This document shows, one piece after another, positions 349-19,106 of a stretch of 27,083 nucleotides of DNA; the stretch's first letter is position 1, and each line of letters opens with the position of its first letter. This DNA comes from a virus: the IMG/VR virus record IMGVR_UViG_3300025097_001935, positions 1 to 27,083 of that record, one strand, 5' to 3'. The position numbers and the translations under genes are program-made. The notes under the pieces were generated by a model, which was not told the origin of the DNA, ran no database searches, and worked only from the letters and a program-made list of their open reading frames with translations.

Positions 349-542
349 GATATGCCTCCTATGGAAAAGAGCAGAGAGTGAGATCCTCGTTCAATCACGC
401 GAAAGAACACAGGTCTTACAATCTACGATCATCTTTATGTGTGAAAGAAGATCACCCCCCGCCCCGAAGGACCGCAGAGCGGTCGTGAGAGGGCTGTAGG
501 TGTTCTGTAAAGTATAATATGATTAGGTACCTAGCTAGTAAC

Positions 543-560
543 CCTAGGGTACTACTATAG
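543..560 (+). promoter_or_regulatory. Candidate T7-type phage promoter, plus orientation
   Basis: The element CCTAGGGTACTACTATAG matches the minus-strand element at 604-621 at 16 of 18 positions. With the final G taken as +1, it has the same 17+1 layout and the same ACTATAG initiation core as class III T7 promoters (known family feature). A matching single-subunit RNA polymerase is encoded about 0.8 kb away. In this orientation it would transcribe rightward, antisense to the 166 aa and polymerase genes, so either it makes antisense RNA or it is only a mirror product of the palindromes. A weaker relative, one base shorter and ending ACTATAT, lies at about 616-632. Confidence 0.4.
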
Positions 561-603
561 AACATAGGAGAATAATATTATAATTTTATCTACACCTATA
601 TAA

Positions 604-621
604 CTATAGTTATACCCTAGG
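604..621 (-). promoter_or_regulatory. Candidate T7-type phage promoter, minus orientation
   Basis: Read on the minus strand from 621 to 604 the element is CCTAGGGTATAACTATAG, sharing 16 of 18 bases with the plus-strand copy at 543-560. Transcription would start near 604 and run toward the 79 aa gene, leaving a leader of about 256 bases. The ACTATAG core and 18-base length resemble T7-type promoters. It overlaps the 16-base palindrome at 599-614. The assignment rests on resemblance and on the nearby polymerase gene, not on several independent intergenic copies. Confidence 0.45.
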
Positions 622-736
622 TTCTACTATATACTCCAACTATAGGTAACCACAACATATAGTAGGTACACTAGCATCTGCATGCCGTTCCTCATTTATA
701 TAATTATTTGTGTCAACCCCCCCCGGAGGAGGTGTC

Positions 737-1277: not shown

Positions 1278-1302
1278 GTTGACTTTCCTTTCTACCCTGT
1301 GA

Positions 1303-1344
1303 GGGTACTAGCCAAGCAACGAGCTTAGCTAGTACCCTTAGGGT
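1303..1344. other. Strong intergenic hairpin sharing an element with the 524-560 region
   Basis: GGGTACTAGC at 1303-1312 pairs perfectly with GCTAGTACCC at 1328-1337. After one mismatch, AAGC (1314-1317) pairs with GCTT (1323-1326) around a 5-base loop. No T-run follows on the minus strand, so it is not a typical intrinsic terminator. A processing site for RNase III or a protein-binding site is more likely. The right arm belongs to a 19-base block (1326-1344) that recurs with two one-base indels at 532-550. Confidence 0.7.
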
Positions 1345-1351
1345 GTTTGAA

Positions 1352-3091
1352 TTAGAGTCCAACGACCATTGGAGTATGATCGTGATTCCAAGGCTTCCAG
1401 TCGCCTTGTTCTTTCCAGAGCGTGGTTACATCGAAGGGCAGATTACTCTGCTTATGGGTCTCCAAGAAGCAATGGCTGAAGGTCTTCATAGCCCACTCAA
1501 GGTAAGCTATTGGGATCACAACAGCATCATGGATGGCTCTGCAAGGAATATTCTTTTCCTTACATTTGAGAACGAAACTGAACATGTTGAAACTGTCCAA
1601 GTTATGGATCAGTTTAGCCAGAACATCTGTGTAAGAACTCTCTACCAGTGTAGAGACTCCACAACCATGTTTCAGTCCTTCGTCATCAACGAAGGAGATA
1701 CCATGCTTCTTTGTGTCCAGCTCACGGTAGTCGAGGATTGGGCATTGCCAACCTCCGATACCAACTACCCTGTCTTCGGGCACTGAGCCTCCAGCCCATG
1801 TTGTCAACCTCTCTACGATAAGAGGAATCATGGGGAAGCAGGACTTGAAGTGAGTAGCATAAGGACTACCCACTTTCTTCTCGAAGAGCTTGACCGCTTC
1901 TTGTGGGTCTTCGATACCCGCAAGAAGTTTCTCGAACGGCTTAGGAACAACGAGTCCCTCATTTGGGATCTTCCAGCAATTCTTGCTATGATCCCATTTG
2001 ATGTCGAGAATCTGTCCAGTGATGGCCTTCTTGCCACCACCGTACTGTCCGACTGTTGTACATGACTTGGCCCAGATCAGTATCTCTTTGATACTCCATG
2101 TAGCCATGAATGGACAACGGCTCTTCAGCTTTGCAACCATACGGAAGTGGAGCTTTCTCCACTTGCTATGATAGCAGTCGATCTCATACATGGAGTACTG
2201 ACCCCATTCCATGAGAATGTGAACAAGACCAGAGGTATGAGCATCGAACTCGACACCTCTGTTAGTCTTGCCTGACTTGCAGATGTCTCGCCATGCTTTG
2301 GCATAAGAGATGGCCTTGATACCATTCTTCTTATCTGAGACATCATCTTCAGCCAAGACTTTCTTAGCCCAGTTGTCTACACCTCTAGTGCCTTGGAGTC
2401 CATACTCCAGACACAGGCATACTTGGAAGAACAACTTGGCCTTCTTCGAGACCTTGAACTTCCTCTTGAACACGAACCAGAAGCGACTCTGAGGCGTGTT
2501 CACTGGACCACACCCACGCATGGACTCGTGAGTGCCTCGGCCACTGATCTGTGTAGTCAGCCACTTGCCAAATACAGAATCAGCTTTGCCGATGTCATTG
2601 ATTGTTTCTGCCACATACGCAGGCATGTAGCCTTCTTTCTGGTCATCCGGCAGCGTTGCCAGATGCCTTTCACAAGAGCCGAACAGTTGTTTGTCCAAGA
2701 CATATTCACAACTGCCCAGATACCTCAGGGCCTCAGACCAGAGAGGAGGCACGGTATTGGTTGCCATCTTGCCAACCACCGGCTCCTCGTACTGAGGCTC
2801 TGTTGAGAAGTACTCAGGCTCGCCCTCATACATAGGCTTACCTTGTACCCATGACTGAAAGATTGCTCTTTCAACCGATCCAGCGACCTCACGAGAGAAG
2901 GGAATACCCATCTCTGCAATGACATCGTTACGTAGAGTTTCGATGGCTTTGCTGTTACCATCCTGCTTTTGCAGGCGTGTATGCAACATAGCCACGTAAC
3001 TCTTGAGCTTTGAGAATACAATTGTAGTTGCATTCTCTGCTCGTTCTCTCAGTGTCCTAGGTTCACTGGGAGTGAGCGAGAGCTTTTTCAT
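1352..3091 (-). CDS. Single-subunit DNA-directed RNA polymerase, T7 family, compact
   Basis: Transcribes phage genes from phage-specific promoters. Landmarks (579 aa numbering): a possible DxxGR-like element QISGR at 181-185; motif A, FDAHTSGLVH, with catalytic D283; motif B with K342 followed eight residues later by Y350-G351, the same K-to-YG spacing as T7 K631/Y639; the IHNLD element with H496 and D499; and motif C with H521-D522. K342 to D522 is 180 residues (181 in T7). The protein is much shorter than T7 RNA polymerase (883 aa): the N-terminal part is reduced and motif A to B is 59 residues instead of 94. The position of T7 R627 is Leu338. The start is set at the ATG at 3091, preceded by AGAAAGGAG; an upstream in-frame TTG at 3124 lies before that ribosome site and is less likely. 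Unusually, it lies downstream of the late genes. Confidence 0.88.
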   Translation of the reverse strand: MKKLSLTPSEPRTLRERAENATTIVFSKLKSYVAMLHTRLQKQDGNSKAIETLRNDVIAEMGIPFSREVAGSVERAIFQSWVQGKPMYEGEPEYFSTEPQYEEPVVGKMATNTVPPLWSEALRYLGSCEYVLDKQLFGSCERHLATLPDDQKEGYMPAYVAETINDIGKADSVFGKWLTTQISGRGTHESMRGCGPVNTPQSRFWFVFKRKFKVSKKAKLFFQVCLCLEYGLQGTRGVDNWAKKVLAEDDVSDKKNGIKAISYAKAWRDICKSGKTNRGVEFDAHTSGLVHILMEWGQYSMYEIDCYHSKWRKLHFRMVAKLKSRCPFMATWSIKEILIWAKSCTTVGQYGGGKKAITGQILDIKWDHSKNCWKIPNEGLVVPKPFEKLLAGIEDPQEAVKLFEKKVGSPYATHFKSCFPMIPLIVERLTTWAGGSVPEDRVVGIGGWQCPILDYRELDTKKHGISFVDDEGLKHGCGVSTLVESSYTDVLAKLIHNLDSFNMFSFVLKCKEKNIPCRAIHDAVVIPIAYLEWAMKTFSHCFLETHKQSNLPFDVTTLWKEQGDWKPWNHDHTPMVVGL

Positions 3092-3107: not shown

Positions 3108-3149
3108 GTCCCGACGAGGGACAATGTGCTGTCATTGAAGGCTGACAGC
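3108..3149. other. Two tandem hairpins in front of the RNA polymerase gene
   Basis: GTCCC 3108-3112 / GGGAC 3118-3122 (5-base loop), and GCTGTCA 3128-3134 / TGACAGC 3143-3149 (8-base loop). In the minus-strand transcript both lie between the 112 aa gene and the polymerase ribosome-binding site. No T-run follows, so they may be RNA-processing or stability elements, as hairpins between T7 genes are (known RNase III sites), or partial attenuators of polymerase expression. Confidence 0.55.
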
Positions 3150-3758: not shown

Positions 3759-6700
3759 CTACAGCAGTCCCTCGGGCATCTCCAGTTTCTCCGGTTGCTC
3801 TTCAATAGAGGCTACTAGGTCTGTACTCTTAGCTTGCCCTGAGGGAGCCGGAGAGCTCGCCACAGGGACGCTAGGCTCTTCTGAGGGCTGGGGTACTGGT
3901 TGCTCTTCGGCAGGCAGTACGTGGCTTCTAGAGTCTCTCTGAGCACGGCGGCTAGGAATACCTAAGGGACTAGCGAATTGACGCTCATACTTAGGCCAAT
4001 CAGGCTCCCACCCAAACGAGTCAAACAATCTTCCTAATCGACTTTCATAGGAACTATTCCTGAACTCTTCTGGTAGACCCATATGCTGGAAGTTATACTG
4101 TGGTTTTAAATTCAGTCCAGAGCTACTACCTCCGCCGGAGTTATGCTGTTTCTTCTCGATCATATCTCCCCATGCTGAGTAGATCCCCAATCTAACAAAG
4201 GCATCTCCAATCATAGGGATAATTCTAGTAGCATTAACCAGATCTTGTTTTGCAAGACTTCCTTCTCCTATCCAACCAGTTCCTAGAGCTACCATATTTT
4301 TTACAACATTAATAGCAGCGGAAGCGGGGATAAAACCATTAGGAGCATCCTTCCCACCAGCCAGAGCAGCCGCAGCCACAGCCATTTGTGCGTAGTACTT
4401 ACCGAAGATAGGAAGCCTTGTTCCATACGTTGTTATAAAACCACTGACTCCACGTTCTTCAAGGTCTTCAAAAAGATCTTCTTTACTAGTACCTGTAGCT
4501 AACCTAAGAAGCATCATGTAGATAATATCTAAAAGAAGCATAGTAATTGCTGTACCAGCCCAAGCTGTCATACTCGATTTTGCTCCTTTGCGGAACATCA
4601 TTTGATTTGCCCACAACACAGGGAATCTACGGAATGTTTCCCATGCCCGAGACCTTAGATCAGTACCAGTATACATATCAAAGACATTAGGCTCAACCAT
4701 ATTCTCATGGATGTATTGAGTTTCGGCTGTTTTAATACCACCAGCAATATCTAACATATTTTTATAATGTGGAGAACCACCTGCCCCTGCATCTGCAATA
4801 GCCAATTGACTTAATAAATGATTTAAGACAAATACCTTGTCCTTGTGTGCGCTATCTTTCATTGCTATTACTAAATCATTTACACGACTAGTATGTAATA
4901 AGCCAGCTACTCTGTAATACTCTAATAGTTTTCCATACCTCATCCAACTAATATTATGTTTATTCATTAAGGCTTTCTTAGCTTTAATAGTAGCCGGTTT
5001 AGTATCGTTTAATTCAGCCACATATCCCATAAACTTATCTTCGTTTTTAACAGCCAGTTTATACATGGCTTTCCTAGCCGTCATAACCCTTGCTGCAATT
5101 GTTTGTCTAAGCACATATTTAGGAACTCTTAAAGCCATATCTGCTGCCGAGTTAACAAAACCGGAGAACATGGCTGGATCATGATCTGAAGCTATTGCAT
5201 CATAATCAGGAAGATGTCCTTGAGTAATAGATTCAATCAGATCTAGGTGGTCTTCAGCCATAAGCCTTAAAGCTTCACCTTGAAGACCAGCTGTCAATGG
5301 AGTAAAGAATGTTCTAAGGCCATCAATAAAACGACCTTCTCCAACTATAGTTACCAAAGTATTAGTAATATGTTCTACAGTTAATGAAGCTAATCCTAGG
5401 TTTCCTGCAAAAGCAAGCTTAGTAATTCCGGGAGCCATTTCGAAAGCCCAGTCTGCCATCTTTCCGTAGCTTGACTCATTCTTTTGGAAACCTCGTAAGA
5501 AGTCATATTTTTCTTGCAGGAATTTCATTGTTGATCTAAAATCTTTTTGTTTTTGCGGGCTTAACGCTCCACCATTAAAGTCGTGTAAGGCTCCTTGCTT
5601 TGCAAGTGTTGAAAATAAAGTAAGGACATCTTGGAACGTTCCTTTAATTCCAAATTGATTTTTTAATATCTGTTTTTCTGCTGTTTCATCAAAAAGACCT
5701 CGCTTTAAATTTGAAAGTGTTTTGTCTGGATTCAATGCTAAACCTTTTCTTATATGTTTATCAGAAATTACTTCCCCTACTCTAGGAACCCACCAAGCAT
5801 CTCTAGCTAAATAGTGGCCTGCATACGCTCTCTGAATAAAATTCATTGTCATCATATGTAAAGCGTTATTATATTCATTTCCTTTCATTAAACTTTCGTG
5901 TAATAATAAAGGAGCTCTTCCTTCTCCCGGTATAAAAGCCATGGCAGATCTAAACCTTTCCGACCGCCTCATACCTTCTTTCGTCATCACAAGTAAAGAT
6001 TGCAGTCTATTATTATGCTCTTGAGTTATGGTTTCCATGTTACTAACCCGATTCAAATTAGCTCTATAAGCGTTTTTTATAGTATTTAGTTCTCCAACGT
6101 GGCTCCCAAATTTAGCTAGGGTAGCCCAAGTAACAACACCATCAGCCATCTTATTATTTATCCTTGCTACAGCAGTATTAAGTGACACACGTATACTAGT
6201 TTCTCTATTCCTAAGGCTTTGTAAAAATGTTCTTCTAAACTTATTTTTTGAATCAGCGAAGGTATCTGCAATAGGTTCTCCAATTATACGCTCTTTAGAA
6301 CTCAGCTTTTCTCTATTCTCAATCTTCCAAACTTCAGACATAAGGAAATTAAACATTATAGGTAAACGAGGTTCACCTTCTGGTGTCAAAAGATCTTCTA
6401 CGGTATTTTCTATGCTATCTATCACAGGGAACAAATAATGTCCTTCTTCAGTTTTAGAGGTTAATAAAAAGTGAGGCTGTATTCTCCCATGGGTGTCTTC
6501 GTTTTTAACATTGTCTATAAATATATTAGACATCCTCTCAGAAAACCTTAAATTAATATCAGCACTCTTTATGTCTTTTGATAAGAGGTAACCCATTAAA
6601 GGATTATGTATTCCAACCTCAGTCCATTCCCCCAGTTCTTGCATATCTGAGATAATATTTTGCATAAACGCTCGCATTTCTTTTGCCATATTAGAAACCA

Positions 6701-9700
6701 ACTGATTAATTTCTAAGACATGTTCTTCTGAATAATTTTCTCTTAAGATAACTTCTGCCTCTTCTGTATGCTGAATTACTGCCCCTTCGTTTTCAACTAA
6801 AGTAGCCCAAATACCCCAACTACTATCCGCAATAATTTTTGATGATGCTCGCATCCCACGGGTTTTCCCTGCACCATGGAGTGCCGTGCTAAAACGTCCT
6901 CTAATTATGTCAATTAAATTATGTTGTTGACTAACTATACTGCTTTGAACAAGAGCCGCAGATTTGAGAGCTGACGTTAAGGAGTGAACACCTGAAGTTG
7001 TCATTAAGTCGCCTTCAAAAACATTTAGGTTACCATCAATAAGATTTGTTAACCAACGGGCAACCAATAAACTTGAGCCCATAGTAAATTCAGAACCTAC
7101 GTGGCCTGAGACACCGCTCTGAGCGAGTCCACGCACATCAATACGCTCTGTACTTAATACCGATGCTACAGCTCTTGCTGCTCGGGCAGCTCCTCGTTGC
7201 ATTTCGTTCCCTTTCTTTTCTGCTAGATCGTCTAACATATACTGACCCATCCAACGTACCTTCTCTGCCAAGACCGCTTCCGACTCGTTTCCAGTCTGTA
7301 TAAATAAACGACTAAGATCTAAGGTCCCCTCATCAGAGGTCATTTTTCTTGTATATTCCTCATACTTACCATAATACATCTTTCTCTTTAAACCAGTTGG
7401 ACCAACAATATCTAGTTTAGTTTCTAGAAATCTCTTTTCTCCTTGTTGTTCTGAAGATAGAACTTCTGTTTCCTCTAGTTCCTTTAGTTTTCTTGCCATT
7501 TCAACATGCTCATCATGATCTACCTTACTAGGAGCTTCGTTATTATGGAACACAGGTTGGAAACCACCGCCCATAGCTTCATAACTTTGGTGTGGGTTGC
7601 CTACATCTGGTAAGACTAATTTAGTAAGGGGATCTAAACCAAATAACCTACTCATTAAATCAGCAACATCTTTCCTATCCTTTGTAATCTTTTGCCAAAC
7701 ATGACTAAGATCTAAGAACAGTCCGTGGACAAAGCCCATCATTCGTTCGATAATACTAGTGGACCTAGCTTTAGCTCCAGCTTCCTCATTAGTAAGATTA
7801 CTAATTTCTGGGAGAAGGTCTTGTAATAAATGATATGATCCTAAGCCAGCAATAAACTCTTCTGTATTTGTAGTATACTTTCTATACTCAGCCCTAGCTT
7901 CTGAAGTCCACTGTCCTCCATGCCAAGCAAGAACTAGTTTCTTTATATAACTCTTTCCAGATCCAGACTCCATAAGATATTTAAAGGAGTTCCACTCAGC
8001 ACCATTATCTTTAATAAACTTAATTCGAGCAACATGAGTTATCTCATGGGCAAAGAGTTCTAGAGCAGAGAATTGATGGCTACTTACATCTCTTAAGTCT
8101 GGACCAAATCGAACAAAATATTTACCATGGGAATCTTTCCCACCCTCAAAAGTTCTTGCATCTATATCAAAAGAAGTGTCTTGTATCAATAAAGGATTAG
8201 TAGCATAAAGATTTAATACCATTATTCGCATAAATCTAGCTTGCTGTCCATCTACCCTACCACTACTTTCGAGCAGTCCAATTTGTCGAGCTATGGCTTG
8301 AAGATCCTCTCTAACAAGGCCTCCCTGATCTCTAGCAAAGTCAACCATAGTCTGTGTATCTCTAGCATAATTCTGTTCTAGTATCCTGTGTTTCAGGGGA
8401 ACAGGTGCTCCCTCTTGAACAGGATGAGGAGAAGAAAGACCATAGACTCCAGAGATTTTATTCCTAGCTTCTTGAGATTGTATAGATCGATAGAGAGCCA
8501 CAGTAGCAAGCTTTTCTTTTAAGCCACTCTCTGGCGTATCTGGGAATAGGATTTTTAGTTCCCTAATAAATCCTGATGTATCTTCTGGTAGGGCGTGCTT
8601 ACCAAAGATAGATTCAATTCCGTCACGAGTGGTCCTCCACTCTGTGCCCCTGAAGTTCCGATTTAAGTTAGTGCCCCAAGTTGCTGTATTTTGTCCCTCA
8701 GCCCAAGCGGGTACTAGAGAACCAACATCGAGACTTTCCCCATCAATGACTAAACTATTAGCCTCTTGGAGTTTTTTGAATAAGTCTGCTGTTAGCTCTA
8801 TATCCCTATTATTATATTCCTCTAATCTTTGCCGAGCTTTCTCTGGAGTTAACTTATTAATTGTTTCTATTTGCGCATCAAATCCTCCCCGTTCATTGAC
8901 ATGGGTTCTACTAACTATAACTCCTCTACTTCTTTCCCATAAGAGAATAGCCAATGCACCACTCTCTTCGGTCTTGCCTTTTCCCCCCAAAGCTTCTGAC
9001 ACCGCTTCTAATTTTAAACCCCTCGAACTTGTTCGATTGTTCCAAGACATTATATTGGTCATTAAATCAACACCTCTTGCGGCAATCCTAGAAGCTAACT
9101 GCATGTCTCCAGCAATCTTCCCTAGAATTCTAAGATCGAAACCTATTCCATTATAAGTTACTATTTTGTAACCATCGTTTATTTTTTGTTCTAAGTTCCT
9201 TAGAATTTCTAAGGCTTCTTTTTTAGTGAGCTCTTTATCCCGTACCCCATGACTTCTTTCACCAGTCTTGGTATCGAGAGAAGCTATTGCTACTACTCTC
9301 TCATGCTGAAGATCTGATTCTATATCTAAGACATAAAGTTTACCATCTTTCATCCAGTTCGCTGTATCAGAGAATTCTGGGCTAGTTGCGTCTACAGCTA
9401 AACCTAACTGAGTAAGTAGTTCGGTGGTTCTGGCTACGTACGCAACCCGAGTTAACTCAGGATTATCTATAGAAAAACCATCCCATTCTCCGCTTTTTTT
9501 TAATCTCTGGATGAAAGCATCTTCGGGATTCATAAGTAACTCTTCACTGAGGGGCAGAATTCCCATACTAAGGTCATAAGCCATTGATTCAGCAGCAAGA
9601 CTAAATGGTAGATTACCAACAATAGAGTTTCTGTTTTCAAGAACAATCATCTGTCGCTGCAAACCAAAGGCTTCCTCAATAAGAGGTCCTACATCCTGTA

Positions 9701-12700
9701 ATCCCTTTTGGTTGGTTCGGTCAACATCATAAATCTTTGGATCTAACATCCACAAGTATTGTCCTTCATTGATTTCTCTTATTGAGTCTCTTTCAGAAGC
9801 TTCTAATAATACTCCTGTATTATGAATCATGGCTGTTAAAATAGAGGCTACTCCACCAGATTTTATATCCCCTTCAGTAACCCCTGTAATCAGTTCTTCT
9901 AGACGAGACAACACACCAAAGCCTTCCAAGCCATGTCTTTGGGATATACTAATAAACTCCTTTATCGGAGCTATCCTTGCTTCTACCCAAGGCAATAGTA
10001 GATCGATATTACTCCCTCGTTGAATGGCATCAAGATCAATTAAACTACGCTTATTGGTAAAAGGACCGGGGGTTGTCATCTGTGGCCCTTTGGTCTCCGG
10101 TGTTTTAGTAACATTAATAATCATTTCCAAAGCACGGCTAATTTGGAATGCTTCGTTTGTTTGAGTTTCTGTAGTATATCCAATTGCTCTTTGCACAGTA
10201 TCTTGTAAAGGATCTGCTTTAACCCTTGTTCCCTCTGGACCTCTTTTAAACCCAAAGACTTTCCCTGCCGCTGCTGCCATATTTAAACTATGTATTACAT
10301 GGTGATTATCAATAATACTAAACATGTCTATTACAGCTGCTGGAGTTAAAGCTAACTTAAATTTTCCGCCAATCAACTTATATTCTCTAGGTATCAGGAC
10401 TTTAAAAGCAAAGCCTAGTTCAGAAAGTGAGTGGGCGGATTGCATAGGAATCTCTTTTCCGTCTCTTTCAACCGTCATTGGGAATTGCTGCTGCAAAGAT
10501 AATGCATGACTATAGTCCTGATTTTCTACTTTGGTTATATCAAAAGTCAGTGAAATTGGCGTTTGCTCGCCCGACAAAGCTAGTTTTCTAACTTGATGCC
10601 AGATCGCCGGGCGGTGGTCTAATGCTATATCCTTCTCCCACCTACTTGGATCCTTGAACCATTTCTCTTCTTTATGCTTATAGGGTTTTTGACCCTCATA
10701 CTCAAAATCCTTAAGTACCTTAGAAACATAATCCTGTATTAAAAGGTTAGGTAAATAAGCAAACGAATCTCTACCCTGTGGAATTTTAGCAGCAGTACCC
10801 GTAGGAGCCTTTCTTACATATTCTGCGAACTTCTCGCCTTGCTTGATAAGTTCCTTTAGTTCAGCCTGTTCGTCATCAGATTTAATTATAACAGTACCCT
10901 CATAAAGAACTGTACCAAAGTCTATTTCTTCCTCAATAGGCGTTGGACTTAATCTGTTATTAGTAACAGCGTCTGCATAAGTTTCACCTGCTTCTATAAG
11001 TTTCGTTATAGCAAGAGGTTGATCTGGTCTTTCGAGTATAATACTAGAGTGTTCCCAATTATTTAGGTTTCTTGCTACTTTTGAAAGTAGGTGTATTCTC
11101 TCAAGATACTGTTCTCTTCGTATATTAAGCTCGTCTATATCAGGATTAGATTTAGAATATCTAGTAAACTCCTCATTAATTTCAGATAATTTCTTAACCA
11201 ACCAATAATAAGGGTATAGCTCACTGGGGTGTTTATATAATTCTGCTAACTCATTATCACCATAAACCCGTTGTACCCAGTTATCTATGTCTTTCGCGGT
11301 CTTTGCAGCAAACATGTTTTCTTCAGGAGTCTCATTAAACCTAGCCAGATAATCAATCACTCTTCTTTGCGGAGGAGCAAACCTAGAGCCTTCATAGGCA
11401 CTAGTCCAACCCCATATAGTCTTATCTTCAAGAGATGTATCTTCATCCATCCCATACTCAAAATCCTCACCTAATATATTTTTTAGTTTATGATGAACTA
11501 CGCTTTCTTGTAAAGCAAAGATACCTCGATCTGTAAAAGCCGATCTAGTATACTGGGGTGATAAAGATAAGATGCCGCGTTGTTGAGAGTTATTAATATA
11601 GTGAGTAACCTCTGATTCTGAGTTAACATATACTCTTGGAGCCGTATTGAGTTTCTCAGCTACACCCTTATTAAATAATCCAAATTTACTTTTAAGCTGC
11701 AAAGCCTTAGGTCCTAGTTGTTCTTCTAAGGCTTGTTCAGCTTGTAATTCCTCACCCATTCTTTCTTGACTCTCTAAATGTTTCATTGCAAAGTCTTGAT
11801 TAAAAAGCACATCACTGTCTTCGGCAGTATAATTAGGAAATATTGATTTGGGAAGTTTTCCGTAAGAAGCCCACCACAGCATAATTTGTTTATATAAAAT
11901 GTTCTCGATTGCGACTTCAGCCTCCTCTAGGGTCATTTCATGATAAGCATTATCTACTAGGTCAAACAGGCCCAGAGTTTCTTCCGCTCCTTTAAACTCT
12001 AAATATTCTTCAAGAACTTTACTCTTTGCTTCGGTATTCCACTCGTCTCCATTATTTTCGTGTTCCCCTTGTCTTATCTCAAAATACTGCTCATAACTAG
12101 TAATCTTTTGCCCAGCATAGTTTATGCCTGTTAAAACAGTTGCAACACGATCTATAGCTTGACCAGTAATATTAAATTTTGAAGCATGTGCTGAATATAA
12201 TCTCCCAGACATTGGGGAGGTCCCCACACCAAGGTAGACGCTATGTCCAACTAAGTGTCCCATCATTTCGTCTAGATCAACACCAGAGAGTGCAAGGGAT
12301 TCTGCTACAGCAGCCGCTCTTTTTCGGTTGAAGGTGTGTCCAGAAGCACCTAGCATATTCATAGCTCTGAAGGTAGCGTTTTGAATTTGTGGCATATCCG
12401 GTCTCCAAATATCCTTTAACCTTTGGATATCTTGCTCAGATACTAACATACCGTTTCCACGTCTCTCTATCTCCGCAAAAAATTCTTCTGTTGCTTTATA
12501 TTGCTTATTGTATCTTTCCTTATATTCTCTCTGAACAGCTTCATGATCAACCGCTCCTTCTTCTGTTCCGTCTTTTCTTCTTCTTTTAAAAGTAAGCTCC
12601 GCAGCTAAGTCCATATTTTCTTCCCATAGTTTTTTTAACTCCCCTAATCGAACTATGGTTGGTGTAAAGTCAGGATCTGGGCTTTCAGACTGTTCGGTAT

Positions 12701-15700
12701 TTCGTTGAATTGTTTCTGATCCCATAACTGCTCCAGCAGAGTTTCTTCGGGTTATTGTAATGTCATCACCCTTTGGGGTCATAGCTTTTTTTGTTGCTTG
12801 AAGCTCACTCCATCTTTCTGTCATTTCTGCAATATCAACTTTACCTAAAGACTTTCTATGATCAACCCCTAAAAGCTTAAGTACGGTATTTCTTAGATCT
12901 TTAGTAACACCAGTAGTAGCTTCAATAAGATTCATTTTACTTACTTCGGCTCTAGTATAGGCTTCACTAAGTGCAATACCTAATTGAGTAATCTTAAGAT
13001 TAAAGAGAATGTTTTCCAAACTCTTTAATACCGGTTCAGGAGGAGCTGTAAACTCTTGGTCCATTGCTTCATATAGTTGCTCCATAGCCTCATAACCCTT
13101 GCCTTGGGGAGTAAAGAATTCTTTTTTAAAGTTTTCTTTACCTGCTTCATAACCTGTCCGCATGAGGGGTACTTTCATTACTGCTCTTAAGGCTACAACA
13201 ACAGGGTCTTTACTGGTCTTTATTTGCTCAACCTTTGTAATACCTTCTAAATGCCGCATAGCTTCGCCTATAATCCCTAAATCGTTCGCTATTTGTGACC
13301 TGTTAGTTCTTAAAGTTTCTATAGCAGTTTTAAGATTCAAGAGCCCAGCACCATAAATATCTTCAAGCTGTGCATCGGTAGCGGTTTCTCTTAAGACAGC
13401 TCCTAATAAACCGTGTTCTTCTATAGCCTTAGTAAACCCAACTTCATCTGCCTCTGTCAATTGTGTAATAATTTTCTCCATAGCTCCCGGAACAAGGGCT
13501 AAGGAAGCAAGTTTCCACTCATGCCTAAAGCTTGCGTTTCTATCGACATGGTTTGCGTCTGAATAGATTTCACTAGTATCTAAATCCGGGTTATCGTTTT
13601 TCCACTTCTTATATTGTTCATTATGATAATCAATAACTTCCTCGACAAGGCCGTGTAAAGCTGGTCCCATCATCTCTATTGAAAAAGCCTCTCCCCAGCG
13701 CCAAATAGGAAGATCTATATCATCGCCTTGAGTTAGAACTGTTGAACCATGTTTCCACTGTGGGTTAAACATAAGATCAGCATCTCTGGAACTAGTAATC
13801 TGATCAAAGATTGTAGAGATTCCCATATTGGGCATATTGAAAAGATAATCTAATAAGAGAGAATGTAGCTGAGACAGGGTTGGTATAGACTGGTCTAAAG
13901 CACCCCCTATAAGTTCAGGAGCTATTCCTGCACCGAAGATAACTCCCAATGGATTTGGGGTGCCTTCAGAAGTATTAGCTTCGTTAATCCATGTTTCGAA
14001 AGCTTCTCTAACACTCTCAGTCATTTCTAAATTAAAAATCTCTTTAACTCTTAAATTAAATCTTTCTCTATTTTGCATTTCGACAAATTTAGCTAGCGGT
14101 GTTTTACTGGCTTTATTTAGTCCCCCAATACCTGCTGTAGCAATACGAAGCGATATACCACCTTCACCTGCATCGTCCTCATTTCTAAAACTTTCGTTCT
14201 GTCCTTCTACAACACTAAGACTTCGTTGTATACTCAACTCCTTATCTGACAATACATCTATAAGGCCATGTCCAACATCCTCTGGAGAAGCCCAATCTAA
14301 CTCCCCATTTCCAAAGTTCTCAATTGTCCACTCTATGCTTTCCCTCGGCGGGGCCAGTACATGGAGATTCTCAATAATCTCTTCAACTGTTTGTTGAACC
14401 GCAGAATGGCTCCTTACTGAATCTAAACCTAGTCTACTTCTAAGTTTATTTAGTTTTGCTAGTTTCTTAGTATCAGAGAACCTAAGTAAAAAAGTATTTA
14501 GTCTGGTTGTCATAGCCTCTATTACAGCCTTTTTAAATAAAAGGCCATTATGCGAGTCTCCTTGGAACGTAATTTTACCTGTAATAAGGTTAACGCTTGA
14601 AATAAAACCATGTACTGCATAGTTTATCTGTAATATAGGTGTTAAACTATGTCGTAAAGTATTAAGATAATCTTTAACCATTACAAGATTAAGGGTTTCA
14701 ATATTATTTAGAATATGCTGTTCCCTTTCTTCCCCTAAAACATCAAGTGCTTCGCTGACCCAACCTTTTAATTCATTAGCGGAACGGGCTTGTTCTCTTT
14801 GGACTATTTCGATTACGCTCTTAAGATTATACATGTGAATTTCTTCTGGAGATGGGTTTCCTATAATAGCTTGCCGTGCTAACGTTCGCCAATCAAGTCC
14901 TCTTTCATTAAGGGCTGAGATAAGATGTCTAATTTCTGCTAATTGGCCCTCAGCTACTAGGTATTCTCCATCTTCAACTATTGTGTGATCGCTAGAATAT
15001 AATTCTTGAAGAAATGTTAATGCACTGGTCCAAGTGTTAAGTTTTTCTATATCACTTGACCATACTCTATCAGGTATTCCGGGAGTACTCCTCTCCAGAA
15101 CATCCGCCCTCGTTTTTGTCGGCATCGGTATTTGACCCTTAGTTCTCAGAGCCTCAAGAATACTGATGACATCTGAACTATTTTTGGGCGTTTCAAATTT
15201 AGATCTCTTAATTACTTGATCATGAGAATCCTTTAACATTTCTCTAGCTTTGTCTACAGTAAGTTCTTCGTTCTGTACTTTCACAAGCGCTTCACCTTCT
15301 AATCCTCTTGTTATATTAAAATAATTTTGAGAGTGACTGGAACTTGGGGCTACCCAGCCACCCATAGTAATCTTCTTACCATCTTTTGTTACTACACGAG
15401 TTCTCATCATCTCATCCAGAGTAAAGGTAACTTCGGCTTGCTCAGTAACTGTAGCTTCAGCTGGTGATACACGGCTTTTAACTACACTTTCAGAAATACC
15501 TAGATTATCAGCTATTTTCTTAACAATAGCATCATCTATTGTACGTCCTTGGGCATCTAATTCATTCAAGATGACATCTAGAGCCCTAAGTTTTGCATCA
15601 GGCACTAGTGCATCTTTTAATGGTATTTTGGTTTTTATTACCGGCTCACCTTTTTGTGAGACTTCTATTCCCAGCTTACCTAGCTCAGTATCACCAAAGA

Positions 15701-18700
15701 GTAACGGAGCCATACCACCTTTGTTTTGAAGGCGTATTCTTGCAGCTTGTCCCGGCCCTCTATTTACAAATATGCCTTGATTATCGACATTAAATGCTGG
15801 ATCTAAATGACCATCTCCGTCAACCACAACCGACACCAGAATATCTCCACCTACGACATGGCCCCATCCAGATTCACCAAAGTCTTCAGCAAGCCAATCC
15901 TTTACATCAAAAAAGCGTCTTCCCTTTTTATCGGCAATCTGTTTTAACTTTAAATCCTTTTTAAGACCCACCATCTTATTTTCTGCCTTTTTTAACAGCA
16001 TAGTCTTTATATGCTCGGGTATAGTAGGATCTTCTTTTATAGTTGCTATAGCTTTTTCAATAGACCGAACAGCTTGTTCAACTGGCATTTCATTAACTTT
16101 ATGGTCTATTACTTGTGCAGCATCATTCCAGTTTTCTATTGTTGGATCGGGTCGGTTGAATAGGGAGGTAGGAGCCTCGGTTGGACGAGCCTCACGAGGA
16201 CCAGCAGCAGCTTTTCGCTCTTTAACAACGGCTTCAAAGTGCTTCTCTAATTCTCTCAATACCCTTCTTACTTCTTGCTGATGACCTAAGGCAATAATAC
16301 CATCTTGTGCTCTTTTTAAGTTTCTGCCTTGAACCCTCTGTTGTCTAATACGTATAGTAGACGCATAGTTCTGGTATTCATTTTTCTTCTTCTTTTTTTT
16401 GCTCTGTAGTTCCTTATAAGCCTCCCAATATGTTTTTCCGGTTTGGGGATCTACCTCTTTCTGTAATCCCTTTTCTATTATTTGTATAAAGTCTTCTTCT
16501 GTCTTTTTAACAAGTTTATTAAATTTATCCGCTTTCACACTTTGCTGGTCTAATAATTTTTCTAATCGTGTAGTATCCAGCTCAGTATCTTCCATAAAAT
16601 TAATCAGCCGACGTAAAGCTTTTTTAGTTTTATCAGTAAGTGTAATTGTACTCTTAGTCTCTTGTAGGTTGTCATAAGCCCTGTTTACAAGGACTGATAG
16701 AATTCTTTTTAATCTTCTATGCTGTATTTCGATCTTTTTCCATTCTGGCCTTTCGATTTCGTTTAGCTTTTTATTTATAGCTTCTAACTCGGTTTTAAAG
16801 TTTTGAAGCATTTCAAATTCTACTCTAGTTGTAAAACTCGTAAGGCTTCTCATTTCTTCTAATGAAATTTGAAGCTGTTCTTCTAAACCGCTTAGGTTAT
16901 CAATTTCTTCCCTCTTCCCTTGCACTTCTGATGCTAGGTCTGTTTTCTCGGAGTCTTGGTCATCATTTAGTTGTTCAAATTCTTCCTGAAGTTCCTTTAC
17001 TTCTTGACCCAACTGGGTTTTTTTGGCTGTTATTTTAGCAAGAGCTCCTGCTGTTCTTTCTTCTGCGGTCTCTGTTCCCGTCTGTGCAGCTTCACTAGTA
17101 ATTATATCTCCCTCTTCATTTACAGTCGTAGACGTATCCTCACCCGTAAATACACCCTCAGTAGCTGTATCTATGTTTCTTAGGATTTCTTCCCAACTAA
17201 AAATAGTTTTATGTCGGAGATCGCCCACCTCATTAAGATGCTGGTTAAAAAAGTCGCTTACCGCACTTAGCTTCTCCTCGTTTGTCTTTTCACTCCAACT
17301 GTCTTCTTTAGTCTCCTCAAACATATTTCGGATTTCGGGAGGCAAGAGTAGTTCTGGTTGATCTGCTAAAACATCCGCAGCTTGTTCCAGACTTATCTCT
17401 TCTGTAGATTCTTTAGCTATCTGTTCAATCAATAGGGAATAATTGACCCTCATAATAATTGCATCCTTTGCGTCTTCACTGATAGTACCAGTATGCTCAC
17501 TTTCAATAAGTCGTTCTACCACAACACCAAGTAATTCCTCTGTAGTATATCCCTCTTCGTTTGGTGTAATATCCTGTAAAATTTCAGCTAAAATTTCTCC
17601 GGAATGCTCTGGAGAAATTCCCATTTTGTCGAAGATAACAGCCAAACTAAGGCTATGGCTTTCGCCCTCAAGGAGTTCTCCAAACGATAAAGAATCAGCT
17701 CCTTCAAGCAATAGTTGGTCTAAGCTTCCTCGCACAGAATCAAATGCTTCGAGCTGTTTTAGGTAACCTTCAGCCGTCTCGGCTCTTAAGAATATCTTTG
17801 ATCTTTTACTGATGGAAAGTATATTTTTAGCGAGGGTTCCACCAGCCTTAGCCCTAGCTCGTAGACCATGGCCCATTAAAGACAGGGGAAGACCACCACC
17901 AAGGCCTATGCCTTTATAACCCCAACCAATGACAGGGTTAATAGCCGGAGAAATTATGGCTTCGAATAAAGTTTCCCAACCAATTCTTCCCCAGTCTAAT
18001 TCCTTTTGATCATGCATGTACATTTTTCTATACTGATTTCTAACCTCAGCCATAAACCCAGTAAGAGCACCTTCTGCAACATTACCGGGAATATTCTTTA
18101 ACCCTCTTACAAAAAACCCCTTGAACCCCTTTCCTCTTGCATAACCCTCTTTCCAAAGATATTTTCTTAAAAGATGAGGACCTACGGTTTCGGGGAGATA
18201 GTTTTGGGCTCTTTGAAGACCTCTTGTTATTCTTAATACTTTCCTAGTTTTATTTATAGATTTTGTAAGTTGGTATACTCCTGAAGCTACTAAAGAAGTA
18301 CCTCCTGTTAAGATACCAAGCAATAAAGAAATTCCCGTACTAGTAACCATATCAGGATCATTAATAACGCCATTAACCAATAGGTTTTTTACCCAGTCTG
18401 CTGTCCAGTAAAGAGTACCATGTCTCTCACCAAAGTCTTCAATACTTTGTCCGATTTCCTTTTTTCTTACAGCATCTCCTAACAGATAGAAGAACTGTGC
18501 TGGATTTCTAGCATTTTTGGTAAGAGTATAAAGACTGTCAACAGAACCCAGTTGCCTTAAAAGAAAGTTAGCTCTTTCGGGATCTCTTTCTAAAAGAATA
18601 TCTACTGCATCTTTAGGGCTCCATCCCGGAGGAGGATTACTGGCCAGCATATCTGTGATATCCTCTTTCCCATGGGATATACCAGACCATTGGTCTACCA

Positions 18701-19106
18701 TATTCCAGCCCGATAACTCAGTACCTGTTTGTAGATACCTCTGGGCTCGTTCATCTAGTTCTAAAATAGTTCCTGTGTACTTATCCTCACCGAAAATAGA
18801 AGAAATACGATCAGCTACGTATTTAATATTAGCGGTATTCTGAGCAAAGATACCTCTGGTATAATCTTGTGCAAAACTTTCAAACGATGCTTGACCATAA
18901 TCTAGGAAACCCCTGTAACTTTTTCCTTTGTTTGTATGTTCTGCCCTTTTTGAAGCAGCACTTCTATTAAACAGCCCTTGTATCGGTAGGTTAGACCACT
19001 CTTCAAAACGTTTCCTACGTTCTTCTTTTACATCTTCCATATTTTCGAGTTGAAAGATTGTAGGATAAATTGGAAGTGGACTGTCTGCCCAAATATTTCT
19101 TGGCAT
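3759..19106 (-). CDS. Giant 5115 aa putative ejected virion protein with exonuclease and metallopeptidase domains
   Basis: One uninterrupted frame of 15.3 kb. The ATG at 19106 follows an AGGAGA ribosome site and starts 13 bases after the previous stop. Layout by residue: N-terminal region without recognised domain; hydrophobic segment about 254-275 (ISLLLGILTGGTSL); Gly/Pro-rich membrane-like stretch about 335-410; long charged coiled-coil region about 680-980 with a Lys run at 903-908; a large unrecognised middle; a DEDDy exonuclease domain about 3254-3450; a zinc-peptidase motif HEITH at 3687-3691; a C-terminal hydrophobic helix about 4848-4868; a Gly/Ser linker near 4985; and a Pro/Glu/Ser-rich tail (about 5060-5115). 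Position after gp14-like and lysozyme-domain proteins suggests it is packaged and ejected, as with T7 gp16, the N4 virion polymerase (about 3500 aa) or the roughly 4600 aa protein of Bcep22-like phages. No N4-type polymerase motifs were found. The role is inferred. Confidence 0.85.
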   Translation of the reverse strand: MPRNIWADSPLPIYPTIFQLENMEDVKEERRKRFEEWSNLPIQGLFNRSAASKRAEHTNKGKSYRGFLDYGQASFESFAQDYTRGIFAQNTANIKYVADRISSIFGEDKYTGTILELDERAQRYLQTGTELSGWNMVDQWSGISHGKEDITDMLASNPPPGWSPKDAVDILLERDPERANFLLRQLGSVDSLYTLTKNARNPAQFFYLLGDAVRKKEIGQSIEDFGERHGTLYWTADWVKNLLVNGVINDPDMVTSTGISLLLGILTGGTSLVASGVYQLTKSINKTRKVLRITRGLQRAQNYLPETVGPHLLRKYLWKEGYARGKGFKGFFVRGLKNIPGNVAEGALTGFMAEVRNQYRKMYMHDQKELDWGRIGWETLFEAIISPAINPVIGWGYKGIGLGGGLPLSLMGHGLRARAKAGGTLAKNILSISKRSKIFLRAETAEGYLKQLEAFDSVRGSLDQLLLEGADSLSFGELLEGESHSLSLAVIFDKMGISPEHSGEILAEILQDITPNEEGYTTEELLGVVVERLIESEHTGTISEDAKDAIIMRVNYSLLIEQIAKESTEEISLEQAADVLADQPELLLPPEIRNMFEETKEDSWSEKTNEEKLSAVSDFFNQHLNEVGDLRHKTIFSWEEILRNIDTATEGVFTGEDTSTTVNEEGDIITSEAAQTGTETAEERTAGALAKITAKKTQLGQEVKELQEEFEQLNDDQDSEKTDLASEVQGKREEIDNLSGLEEQLQISLEEMRSLTSFTTRVEFEMLQNFKTELEAINKKLNEIERPEWKKIEIQHRRLKRILSVLVNRAYDNLQETKSTITLTDKTKKALRRLINFMEDTELDTTRLEKLLDQQSVKADKFNKLVKKTEEDFIQIIEKGLQKEVDPQTGKTYWEAYKELQSKKKKKKNEYQNYASTIRIRQQRVQGRNLKRAQDGIIALGHQQEVRRVLRELEKHFEAVVKERKAAAGPREARPTEAPTSLFNRPDPTIENWNDAAQVIDHKVNEMPVEQAVRSIEKAIATIKEDPTIPEHIKTMLLKKAENKMVGLKKDLKLKQIADKKGRRFFDVKDWLAEDFGESGWGHVVGGDILVSVVVDGDGHLDPAFNVDNQGIFVNRGPGQAARIRLQNKGGMAPLLFGDTELGKLGIEVSQKGEPVIKTKIPLKDALVPDAKLRALDVILNELDAQGRTIDDAIVKKIADNLGISESVVKSRVSPAEATVTEQAEVTFTLDEMMRTRVVTKDGKKITMGGWVAPSSSHSQNYFNITRGLEGEALVKVQNEELTVDKAREMLKDSHDQVIKRSKFETPKNSSDVISILEALRTKGQIPMPTKTRADVLERSTPGIPDRVWSSDIEKLNTWTSALTFLQELYSSDHTIVEDGEYLVAEGQLAEIRHLISALNERGLDWRTLARQAIIGNPSPEEIHMYNLKSVIEIVQREQARSANELKGWVSEALDVLGEEREQHILNNIETLNLVMVKDYLNTLRHSLTPILQINYAVHGFISSVNLITGKITFQGDSHNGLLFKKAVIEAMTTRLNTFLLRFSDTKKLAKLNKLRSRLGLDSVRSHSAVQQTVEEIIENLHVLAPPRESIEWTIENFGNGELDWASPEDVGHGLIDVLSDKELSIQRSLSVVEGQNESFRNEDDAGEGGISLRIATAGIGGLNKASKTPLAKFVEMQNRERFNLRVKEIFNLEMTESVREAFETWINEANTSEGTPNPLGVIFGAGIAPELIGGALDQSIPTLSQLHSLLLDYLFNMPNMGISTIFDQITSSRDADLMFNPQWKHGSTVLTQGDDIDLPIWRWGEAFSIEMMGPALHGLVEEVIDYHNEQYKKWKNDNPDLDTSEIYSDANHVDRNASFRHEWKLASLALVPGAMEKIITQLTEADEVGFTKAIEEHGLLGAVLRETATDAQLEDIYGAGLLNLKTAIETLRTNRSQIANDLGIIGEAMRHLEGITKVEQIKTSKDPVVVALRAVMKVPLMRTGYEAGKENFKKEFFTPQGKGYEAMEQLYEAMDQEFTAPPEPVLKSLENILFNLKITQLGIALSEAYTRAEVSKMNLIEATTGVTKDLRNTVLKLLGVDHRKSLGKVDIAEMTERWSELQATKKAMTPKGDDITITRRNSAGAVMGSETIQRNTEQSESPDPDFTPTIVRLGELKKLWEENMDLAAELTFKRRRKDGTEEGAVDHEAVQREYKERYNKQYKATEEFFAEIERRGNGMLVSEQDIQRLKDIWRPDMPQIQNATFRAMNMLGASGHTFNRKRAAAVAESLALSGVDLDEMMGHLVGHSVYLGVGTSPMSGRLYSAHASKFNITGQAIDRVATVLTGINYAGQKITSYEQYFEIRQGEHENNGDEWNTEAKSKVLEEYLEFKGAEETLGLFDLVDNAYHEMTLEEAEVAIENILYKQIMLWWASYGKLPKSIFPNYTAEDSDVLFNQDFAMKHLESQERMGEELQAEQALEEQLGPKALQLKSKFGLFNKGVAEKLNTAPRVYVNSESEVTHYINNSQQRGILSLSPQYTRSAFTDRGIFALQESVVHHKLKNILGEDFEYGMDEDTSLEDKTIWGWTSAYEGSRFAPPQRRVIDYLARFNETPEENMFAAKTAKDIDNWVQRVYGDNELAELYKHPSELYPYYWLVKKLSEINEEFTRYSKSNPDIDELNIRREQYLERIHLLSKVARNLNNWEHSSIILERPDQPLAITKLIEAGETYADAVTNNRLSPTPIEEEIDFGTVLYEGTVIIKSDDEQAELKELIKQGEKFAEYVRKAPTGTAAKIPQGRDSFAYLPNLLIQDYVSKVLKDFEYEGQKPYKHKEEKWFKDPSRWEKDIALDHRPAIWHQVRKLALSGEQTPISLTFDITKVENQDYSHALSLQQQFPMTVERDGKEIPMQSAHSLSELGFAFKVLIPREYKLIGGKFKLALTPAAVIDMFSIIDNHHVIHSLNMAAAAGKVFGFKRGPEGTRVKADPLQDTVQRAIGYTTETQTNEAFQISRALEMIINVTKTPETKGPQMTTPGPFTNKRSLIDLDAIQRGSNIDLLLPWVEARIAPIKEFISISQRHGLEGFGVLSRLEELITGVTEGDIKSGGVASILTAMIHNTGVLLEASERDSIREINEGQYLWMLDPKIYDVDRTNQKGLQDVGPLIEEAFGLQRQMIVLENRNSIVGNLPFSLAAESMAYDLSMGILPLSEELLMNPEDAFIQRLKKSGEWDGFSIDNPELTRVAYVARTTELLTQLGLAVDATSPEFSDTANWMKDGKLYVLDIESDLQHERVVAIASLDTKTGERSHGVRDKELTKKEALEILRNLEQKINDGYKIVTYNGIGFDLRILGKIAGDMQLASRIAARGVDLMTNIMSWNNRTSSRGLKLEAVSEALGGKGKTEESGALAILLWERSRGVIVSRTHVNERGGFDAQIETINKLTPEKARQRLEEYNNRDIELTADLFKKLQEANSLVIDGESLDVGSLVPAWAEGQNTATWGTNLNRNFRGTEWRTTRDGIESIFGKHALPEDTSGFIRELKILFPDTPESGLKEKLATVALYRSIQSQEARNKISGVYGLSSPHPVQEGAPVPLKHRILEQNYARDTQTMVDFARDQGGLVREDLQAIARQIGLLESSGRVDGQQARFMRIMVLNLYATNPLLIQDTSFDIDARTFEGGKDSHGKYFVRFGPDLRDVSSHQFSALELFAHEITHVARIKFIKDNGAEWNSFKYLMESGSGKSYIKKLVLAWHGGQWTSEARAEYRKYTTNTEEFIAGLGSYHLLQDLLPEISNLTNEEAGAKARSTSIIERMMGFVHGLFLDLSHVWQKITKDRKDVADLMSRLFGLDPLTKLVLPDVGNPHQSYEAMGGGFQPVFHNNEAPSKVDHDEHVEMARKLKELEETEVLSSEQQGEKRFLETKLDIVGPTGLKRKMYYGKYEEYTRKMTSDEGTLDLSRLFIQTGNESEAVLAEKVRWMGQYMLDDLAEKKGNEMQRGAARAARAVASVLSTERIDVRGLAQSGVSGHVGSEFTMGSSLLVARWLTNLIDGNLNVFEGDLMTTSGVHSLTSALKSAALVQSSIVSQQHNLIDIIRGRFSTALHGAGKTRGMRASSKIIADSSWGIWATLVENEGAVIQHTEEAEVILRENYSEEHVLEINQLVSNMAKEMRAFMQNIISDMQELGEWTEVGIHNPLMGYLLSKDIKSADINLRFSERMSNIFIDNVKNEDTHGRIQPHFLLTSKTEEGHYLFPVIDSIENTVEDLLTPEGEPRLPIMFNFLMSEVWKIENREKLSSKERIIGEPIADTFADSKNKFRRTFLQSLRNRETSIRVSLNTAVARINNKMADGVVTWATLAKFGSHVGELNTIKNAYRANLNRVSNMETITQEHNNRLQSLLVMTKEGMRRSERFRSAMAFIPGEGRAPLLLHESLMKGNEYNNALHMMTMNFIQRAYAGHYLARDAWWVPRVGEVISDKHIRKGLALNPDKTLSNLKRGLFDETAEKQILKNQFGIKGTFQDVLTLFSTLAKQGALHDFNGGALSPQKQKDFRSTMKFLQEKYDFLRGFQKNESSYGKMADWAFEMAPGITKLAFAGNLGLASLTVEHITNTLVTIVGEGRFIDGLRTFFTPLTAGLQGEALRLMAEDHLDLIESITQGHLPDYDAIASDHDPAMFSGFVNSAADMALRVPKYVLRQTIAARVMTARKAMYKLAVKNEDKFMGYVAELNDTKPATIKAKKALMNKHNISWMRYGKLLEYYRVAGLLHTSRVNDLVIAMKDSAHKDKVFVLNHLLSQLAIADAGAGGSPHYKNMLDIAGGIKTAETQYIHENMVEPNVFDMYTGTDLRSRAWETFRRFPVLWANQMMFRKGAKSSMTAWAGTAITMLLLDIIYMMLLRLATGTSKEDLFEDLEERGVSGFITTYGTRLPIFGKYYAQMAVAAAALAGGKDAPNGFIPASAAINVVKNMVALGTGWIGEGSLAKQDLVNATRIIPMIGDAFVRLGIYSAWGDMIEKKQHNSGGGSSSGLNLKPQYNFQHMGLPEEFRNSSYESRLGRLFDSFGWEPDWPKYERQFASPLGIPSRRAQRDSRSHVLPAEEQPVPQPSEEPSVPVASSPAPSGQAKSTDLVASIEEQPEKLEMPEGLL
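7827..8129 (-). other. Zincin metallopeptidase-like domain within the giant protein
   Basis: Residues about 3660-3760. The motif ELFAHEITHVAR gives H3687, E3688 and H3691, the standard HExxH zinc-binding and catalytic signature in a hydrophobic helix. About 58 residues later NTEEFIAGLGSY offers E3749 or E3750 as third ligand, the arrangement of gluzincin-type and phage or toxin metallopeptidases (family knowledge). Target unknown; self-processing, cell-wall protein cleavage or attack on a host protein are all possible. HExxH alone can occur by chance, so the downstream EEFIAG element and the helical context carry the call. Confidence 0.6.
8757..9347 (-). other. DEDDy 3'-5' exonuclease domain within the giant protein
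   Basis: Residues about 3254-3450. All conserved blocks of the DnaQ/PolB-type exonuclease (RNase H fold) are in order: Exo I LYVLDIES with D3261 and E3263; Exo II TYNGIGFDLRIL with D3324; a GLKLEAVSEALGG helix typical of the family; and Exo III YNNRD with Y3431 and D3435, the Y-x3-D form of DEDDy enzymes. Spacing (63 and 111 residues between the Asp residues) fits an intact domain with a modest insertion before Exo III. All four acidic metal ligands are present, so activity on DNA or RNA is plausible. Confidence 0.8.

What the first reader, a model, noticed from the sequence alone, without database searches (positions are those of the whole stretch)
1352..3091. Compact single-subunit RNA polymerase that lacks the motif B arginine
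Motifs A, B and C, and the IHNLD element, are recognisable with T7-like spacing from motif B to C (180 against 181 residues). The protein is only 579 aa, and the motif A to B interval is 35 residues shorter. Leu338 stands where T7 has R627, four residues before the catalytic lysine. The reduced N-terminal and specificity parts suggest a divergent promoter-recognition mode.
Basis: partly seen in the sequence, partly recalled or inferred. Interest (0 to 1): 0.68.

Follow-up and report, generated by a model that had tools for sequence, protein, structure and literature searches.

The report
Compact second phage RNA polymerase
This gene encodes an unusually small, highly diverged relative of the T7 phage RNA polymerase, and related phages carry it next to a normal T7-type polymerase, so it looks like an extra, stripped-down transcription enzyme whose NTP-gripping residues have been replaced.

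Summary
[quoted passage not shown] It keeps motif A (D283), the motif B Lys and Tyr (K342, Y350), H496 and motif C (H521-D522). Leu338 occupies the T7 R627 position. Two points need correcting. The short A-B interval (59) also occurs in two marine phage ssRNAPs, and the T7-like B-C spacing is not typical of the family. The real surprise is context. A terminase-led search found an uncultured T7-type podophage lineage (records up to 64-68 kb). Three long relatives encode a canonical T7-like RNAP (812-826 aa) plus a second compact ssRNAP (590-677 aa), in the same slot after a giant virion-type gene. The nearest compact relative has Glu at R627 and another has Ser. In the same three enzymes the 'DK' pair (T7 D471-K472), a second triphosphate contact, is not recognisable, although that alignment is less certain. 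Canonical RNAPs of the lineage and all surveyed ssRNAPs with the column keep the Arg (27/27). I read it as a new variant of ssRNAP: probably an active accessory polymerase with altered NTP binding and cofactor-dependent initiation, like N4 RNAPII. Activity and promoter use are untested, and no structure of useful confidence was obtained.

The parts
1352..3091 (-). Gene of the compact single-subunit RNA polymerase, 579 aa (ATG 3091-3089; an in-frame TTG at 3124 would give 590 aa, less likely)
2537..2539 (-). R185, best candidate for the DxxGR Arg (T7 R425); the Asp is replaced (Q181 or S183 depending on the alignment)
   Evidence: alignment of this element is uncertain
2213..2251 (-). Motif A EFDAHTSGLVHIL (residues 281-293) with catalytic D283 and G288 (T7 D537, G542)
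2039..2080 (-). Motif B LIWAKSCTTVGQYG (residues 338-351): L338 (T7 R627), K342 (K631), Y350 (Y639)
1592..1609 (-). IHNLDS element (residues 495-500) with H496 (T7 H784, ribose selection)
1511..1537 (-). Motif C AIHDAVVIP (residues 519-527) with H521-D522 (T7 H811-D812)
1281..1359 (-). Strong stem-loop (16-pair stem, 5-nt loop) just after the polymerase stop codon, no U-run; candidate RNA processing site
   Evidence: z = -6.9
3759..19106 (-). Upstream neighbour: giant 5115-aa virion-type protein with an RNase H-like exonuclease domain, an HExxH motif and a weak ssRNAP motif B-like segment; marks the conserved slot of the compact polymerase

Best explanation
The gene encodes a catalytically competent but specialised single-subunit RNA polymerase, the second phage-encoded one of an uncultured T7-type podophage lineage whose main enzyme is a canonical T7-like RNAP encoded a few kb further on. 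It keeps the two-metal palm (D283, D522), the motif B Lys (K342) and the ribose-selection residues (Y350, H496, G288), and so should make RNA. It has lost the motif B Arg, and probably the D471-K472 pair, that in T7 hold the triphosphate before insertion, so NTP binding should rest on K342 and unknown substitutes (K335 on the same face of the helix is a guess). It lacks most of the N-terminal region with which T7 RNAP reads and melts promoters. It therefore probably needs a partner protein or single-stranded DNA to start, in the manner of N4 RNAPII, and transcribes one temporal class of genes. Shown: family, motifs, substitutions, conserved slot, canonical RNAP in relatives. Inferred: activity, cofactor need, temporal role, and a canonical RNAP in the window's own phage (that part is not in the 27 kb fragment).
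For: Profile match against shuffles. Catalytic Asp, Lys, Tyr and motif C HD present in all four compact enzymes. A four-member profile finds mitochondrial and T7 RNAP structures (E 1e-18 and 1e-12), with the two less diverged members carrying most of that signal; a profile of the two Q-like members alone finds none. Closest relative G001 598 aa, E 1e-10, 23% over 291 aa (E 9.1e-12). Same slot and strand after the giant gene in the window, G001, G006 and G011. Canonical RNAPs at 2e-79 or better in the same records. R627 is Arg in 27 of 27 other enzymes with the column, but L, E and S in three of four compact ones. T7 contacts D471, K472, R627, K631 from PMC9836923; T7 R627S keeps 10-30% activity in a coupled assay (PMC8155940). 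N4 RNAPII as precedent for a small enzyme that needs a cofactor (PMC4496689).
Against: No structure of useful confidence (single-sequence AlphaFold mean pLDDT 34). Only one relative with detectable pairwise similarity over the palm. The DK loss depends on an alignment that also allows 'GVDN' at 237-240. The four compact enzymes are not shown to be one clade (AU p 0.28 for holding them together). No promoter found. Loss of several NTP-contact residues would also fit an enzyme in decay.
Confidence: 0.62

Rival explanations
1. Pseudo-polymerase: the fold is kept but catalysis is weak or lost, and the protein acts as a regulator, for example as a decoy or modulator of the canonical RNAP.
For: Replacement of R627, and probably of D471-K472, in three of four compact enzymes; very long branches.
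Against: Both catalytic Asp, K631, Y639 and motif C HD are kept in all four despite 17-20% identity to the window protein over the four-way alignment; T7 R627S is still active.
Confidence: 0.15
2. A virion-packaged RNAP ejected with the DNA, since the gene directly follows the virion protein operon on the same strand.
For: Position after the giant virion-type gene in four genomes.
Against: N4 packages a ~3,500-aa vRNAP; here the giant protein is the better candidate. The G+C content of the compact gene differs from the giant virion gene in all four genomes, which suggests it belongs to the next gene block.
Confidence: 0.1
3. A primase: a small ssRNAP that makes RNA primers for replication.
For: Small size and probable lack of a promoter-binding part.
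Against: Relatives encode a T7-type primase-helicase with Toprim and DnaB domains.
Confidence: 0.07
4. Assembly chimera: the 1-3.8 kb segment (about 49% G+C against about 40%) was joined wrongly to the virion operon, and the gene belongs to another virus.
For: Sharp composition step near 3.8 kb.
Against: The same slot and the same step occur in three independent relatives: compact RNAP gene 0.50-0.57 G+C against 0.37-0.40 for the giant gene.
Confidence: 0.04

Closest known systems
T7 RNA polymerase and Autographiviridae RNAPs
   Same: Motifs A, B and C, H784 and Y639 equivalents; the lineage has a T7-type terminase (37-39% to Autographiviridae) and head-tail connector
   Different: 579 against 883 aa; N-terminal part before R425 cut from 425 to 185 residues; no R627; D471-K472 probably gone; a canonical RNAP is encoded as well in the relatives
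N4 RNAPII (gp15/gp16, Schitoviridae)
   Same: Small ssRNAP (673 aa in two chains) with a reduced N-terminal part, in phages that carry a second ssRNAP
   Different: One chain here; N4 RNAPII keeps R627 and D471-K472; no close sequence link on the tree
N4 virion RNAP (gp50)
   Same: Highly diverged ssRNAP; TxxGR in place of DxxGR, T-R in place of the DK pair
   Different: Keeps the motif B Arg (R666 of mini-vRNAP); ~3,500-aa ejected protein
Lactococcus phage KSY1 gp033
   Same: Diverged ssRNAP with a similar motif C (VHDAMIVP)
   Different: 820 aa, keeps R627 and DK
Compact ORF of IMGVR_UViG_3300033182_000145 (G001, 598 aa)
   Same: Nearest relative found: same slot, E 1e-10, no Arg at R627 (Glu)
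   Different: 23% identity; uncultured, no annotation seen

Membership tests
T7-like single-subunit RNA polymerase | Motif A Asp and motif C His-Asp of the palm | tested here: met
   D283, H521-D522
T7-like single-subunit RNA polymerase | Motif B Lys and Tyr at +8 | tested here: met
   K342, Y350
T7-like single-subunit RNA polymerase | Motif B Arg at -4 (R627) | tested here: not met
   Leu338; Glu and Ser in two relatives; 27 of 27 other enzymes have Arg. I treat it as a conserved residue rather than a defining one, because T7 R627S is partly active and the other family features are met; hence 'variant'
T7-like single-subunit RNA polymerase | DxxGR element | tested here: inconclusive
   QISGR or SGRGT depending on the alignment
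T7-like single-subunit RNA polymerase | RNA polymerase residues G542 and H784 | tested here: met
   G288, H496
T7-like single-subunit RNA polymerase | Significant profile match | tested here: met
   23.0 bits against 4.1 for the best of 2000 shuffles; Pfam RNA_pol alone below cut-off
T7-like single-subunit RNA polymerase | Right-hand fold overlaid on T7 RNAP | tested here: inconclusive
   AlphaFold model of a single sequence unusable
N4 RNAPII | Split into two chains (gp15 + gp16) | tested here: not met
   Single ORF
N4 RNAPII | Depends on a single-strand binding cofactor (gp2) | not testable with these tools
   Needs biochemistry
DNA polymerase family A | Match to a family A profile | tested here: not met
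   No match to the lineage's own pol A profile; no Pfam DNA_pol_A match

The most novel reading that the evidence does not exclude
The lineage runs three ssRNAP-derived modules: an ejected giant protein with an N4-vRNAP-like domain, a compact polymerase with a stripped NTP grip, and a canonical T7-type RNAP. This would be a three-step polymerase cascade in a T7-type phage, joining the T7 and N4 strategies.
Probability: 0.3. Interest if true: 0.8.

Novelty: new variant of a known kind. Interest (0 to 1): 0.6.

Why it matters
Autographiviridae are known for one ssRNAP, and N4-type phages for two. A T7-type lineage with a canonical ssRNAP plus a compact one is a natural test of which parts of the T7 active site are dispensable and of how a small ssRNAP starts without the usual promoter-binding domain. 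Loss of the motif B Arg in several such enzymes makes the role of R627 in NTP pre-insertion testable in natural enzymes. Very small single-chain RNA polymerases are also of interest as tools.

Tried and rejected
Relatives by the polymerase itself: no match in phages, none confirmed in IMG/VR or genomes; only the terminase route worked. Weak hits to Vibrio phages F100 and 1.193.O (537 aa) were read and set aside: their motif A and B are not of ssRNAP type. Alignments of distant ssRNAPs were too divergent to search with. AlphaFold on the single sequence failed; the second job was not used, because its stated rule lists only loci of certain tools and the relatives came through others. Promoter search by degenerate 18-mers gave only ribosome-binding and start-codon repeats. 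DNA polymerase A, assembly chimera and primase readings were considered and are disfavoured. The tree does not resolve whether the compact enzymes share one origin; only window + G001 group (96/90), with long branches. Randomised copies of the protein were generated as possible search decoys but never used as queries. Papers: no description of T7-type phages with two ssRNAPs found in the held library.

Full report
What was checked. The finding lies on the minus strand: ATG at 3091, stop at 1352-1354, 579 aa, with a good ribosome-binding site. The record is a 27,083-base virus contig, so it is a fragment.

Is it an RNA polymerase? Pfam alone sees only the motif C region below its cut-off (17.4 of 22 bits). 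A profile from 16 phage ssRNAPs that I collected (T7, N4 RNAPII, N4 vRNAP, KSY1, S-TIP37, phiKMV-like and others) scores the protein 23.0 bits through motifs A and C. The best of 2000 shuffles reaches 4.1 and a DNA polymerase A profile finds nothing. hhalign aligns 493 columns with P 3.3e-7. Motif residues: D283 (T7 D537), G288 (G542), K342 (K631), Y350 (Y639), H496 (H784), H521-D522 (H811-D812), and Leu338 at R627.

A-B is 59 against 94 in T7, yet it is 59 also in S-TIP37 and MedDCM-S28-C3 and 51-64 in N4 RNAPII-type enzymes and KSY1. B-C is 180 against 181 in T7, yet most T7-like enzymes have 155-168. What is truly reduced is the part before the R425 equivalent: 185 residues against 425 in T7 and 240 in N4 RNAPII.

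Relatives. Searching with the polymerase found nothing. A sister contig (L002) matches the window's virion genes and overlaps its right end at 97-98% nucleotide identity, and carries a T7-type large terminase, 37-39% identical to Autographiviridae. A terminase alignment then gave a distinct group in IMG/VR, L025-L042, at 51-78% identity, with the next best at 40% or less. Several of these records are long: 63,982, 67,272, 68,158 and 57,266 bases.

Two polymerases. In these records Pfam RNA_pol finds a canonical RNAP of 812-834 aa (four records, E 2e-79 or better), plus a second compact one in G011 (677 aa, 6e-33) and G006 (590 aa, 5.5e-29). The window protein itself finds the third, G001 (598 aa; E 9.1e-12, and E 1e-10 with 23% over 291 aa in the pairwise comparison). 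In the window, G001, G006 and G011 the compact gene follows the giant virion-type gene on the same strand; in the three relatives the canonical RNAP, primase-helicase and pol A come further on. In G015 only the canonical RNAP was found in the part that is held.

The Arg. In an alignment of all these enzymes R627 is Arg in 27 of 27 ssRNAPs that have the column, including the four canonical RNAPs of the lineage. In the compact set it is Leu (window), Glu (G001), Ser (G006, with an Arg one residue before) and Arg (G011). The D471-K472 pair is replaced in the same three (Q-G, gap, L-M) and kept in G011, although in the window protein an alternative alignment would put D239-N240 there. In T7, D471, K472, R627 and K631 hold the triphosphate and metal B before insertion (PMC9836923), and R627S retains 10-30% activity in a coupled assay (PMC8155940). 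So the substitution is real, shared and tolerable, and goes with a wider change of the NTP site.

Not a chimera. The window's G+C step at 3.8 kb recurs in the relatives: compact gene 0.57, 0.50, 0.53 against giant gene 0.40, 0.375, 0.37.

Tree. Window + G001 group (96/90). The four compact enzymes are neither shown nor rejected as one clade (AU p 0.28), and long branches limit the tree.

Mechanism. I take it as an active accessory polymerase (0.62). Family, motifs, substitutions and slot are shown. Activity, cofactor-dependent start (by analogy with N4 RNAPII, PMC4496689) and temporal role are inferred. No promoter motif was found. The window's own canonical RNAP is expected but lies outside the fragment.

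Novelty. The compact polymerase is a new variant of ssRNAP. The lineage, with canonical and compact ssRNAPs together, is not described in the papers that I could search, which is not proof that it is undescribed.

Noticed in passing
window 3759-19106 (-), residues about 1850-1990 of the 5115-aa protein; G001 giant residue 1935; G006 giant residue 2260: Giant virion-type proteins carry an ssRNAP motif B-like segment (RAVMKVPLMRTGYEAG, REFLKIPIMRKLYGGG, RKLFKKPVMVYLYGAG), a D-x-Y element before it and, in G006, a motif A-like FDGNFNGIHH. G006 is supported by profile (1.9e-6; hhalign P 2e-4); for the window it rests on alignment with the relatives, and its own profile match is not significant. 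It may be an N4-vRNAP-like domain; no motif C was found downstream, and an IHD-like segment lies upstream instead.
   Followed up: partly
window 3759-19106 (-): The giant protein also has an RNase H-like 3'-5' exonuclease domain (Pfam RNase_H_2, 3e-10) and an HExxH motif at residue 3687; N4 vRNAP has an HExxH too.
   Followed up: partly
window 23708-25222 (-) against L002 3341-5455: Same gene position, different C-terminal module: a lysozyme-like domain in the window, an HExxH (zincin-like) segment in the sister contig, whose shared stretches are 97-98% identical at nucleotide level.
   Followed up: partly
window 1281-1359 (-): Very stable stem-loop with a 16-pair stem between the polymerase stop codon and the next gene, z = -6.9, no U-run.
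   Followed up: partly
window 530-660: AT-rich non-coding stretch with long inverted repeats (CCTAGGGTACTACTATAG and CTATAGTTATACCCTAGG) and three CTATAG; only weakly above chance.
   Followed up: partly
L025-L042 (IMG/VR records): An apparently undescribed podophage lineage with T7-type terminase and connector, records of up to 64-68 kb, B12-dependent ribonucleotide reductase (G001) and giant proteins of 3,500-5,100 residues.
   Followed up: partly
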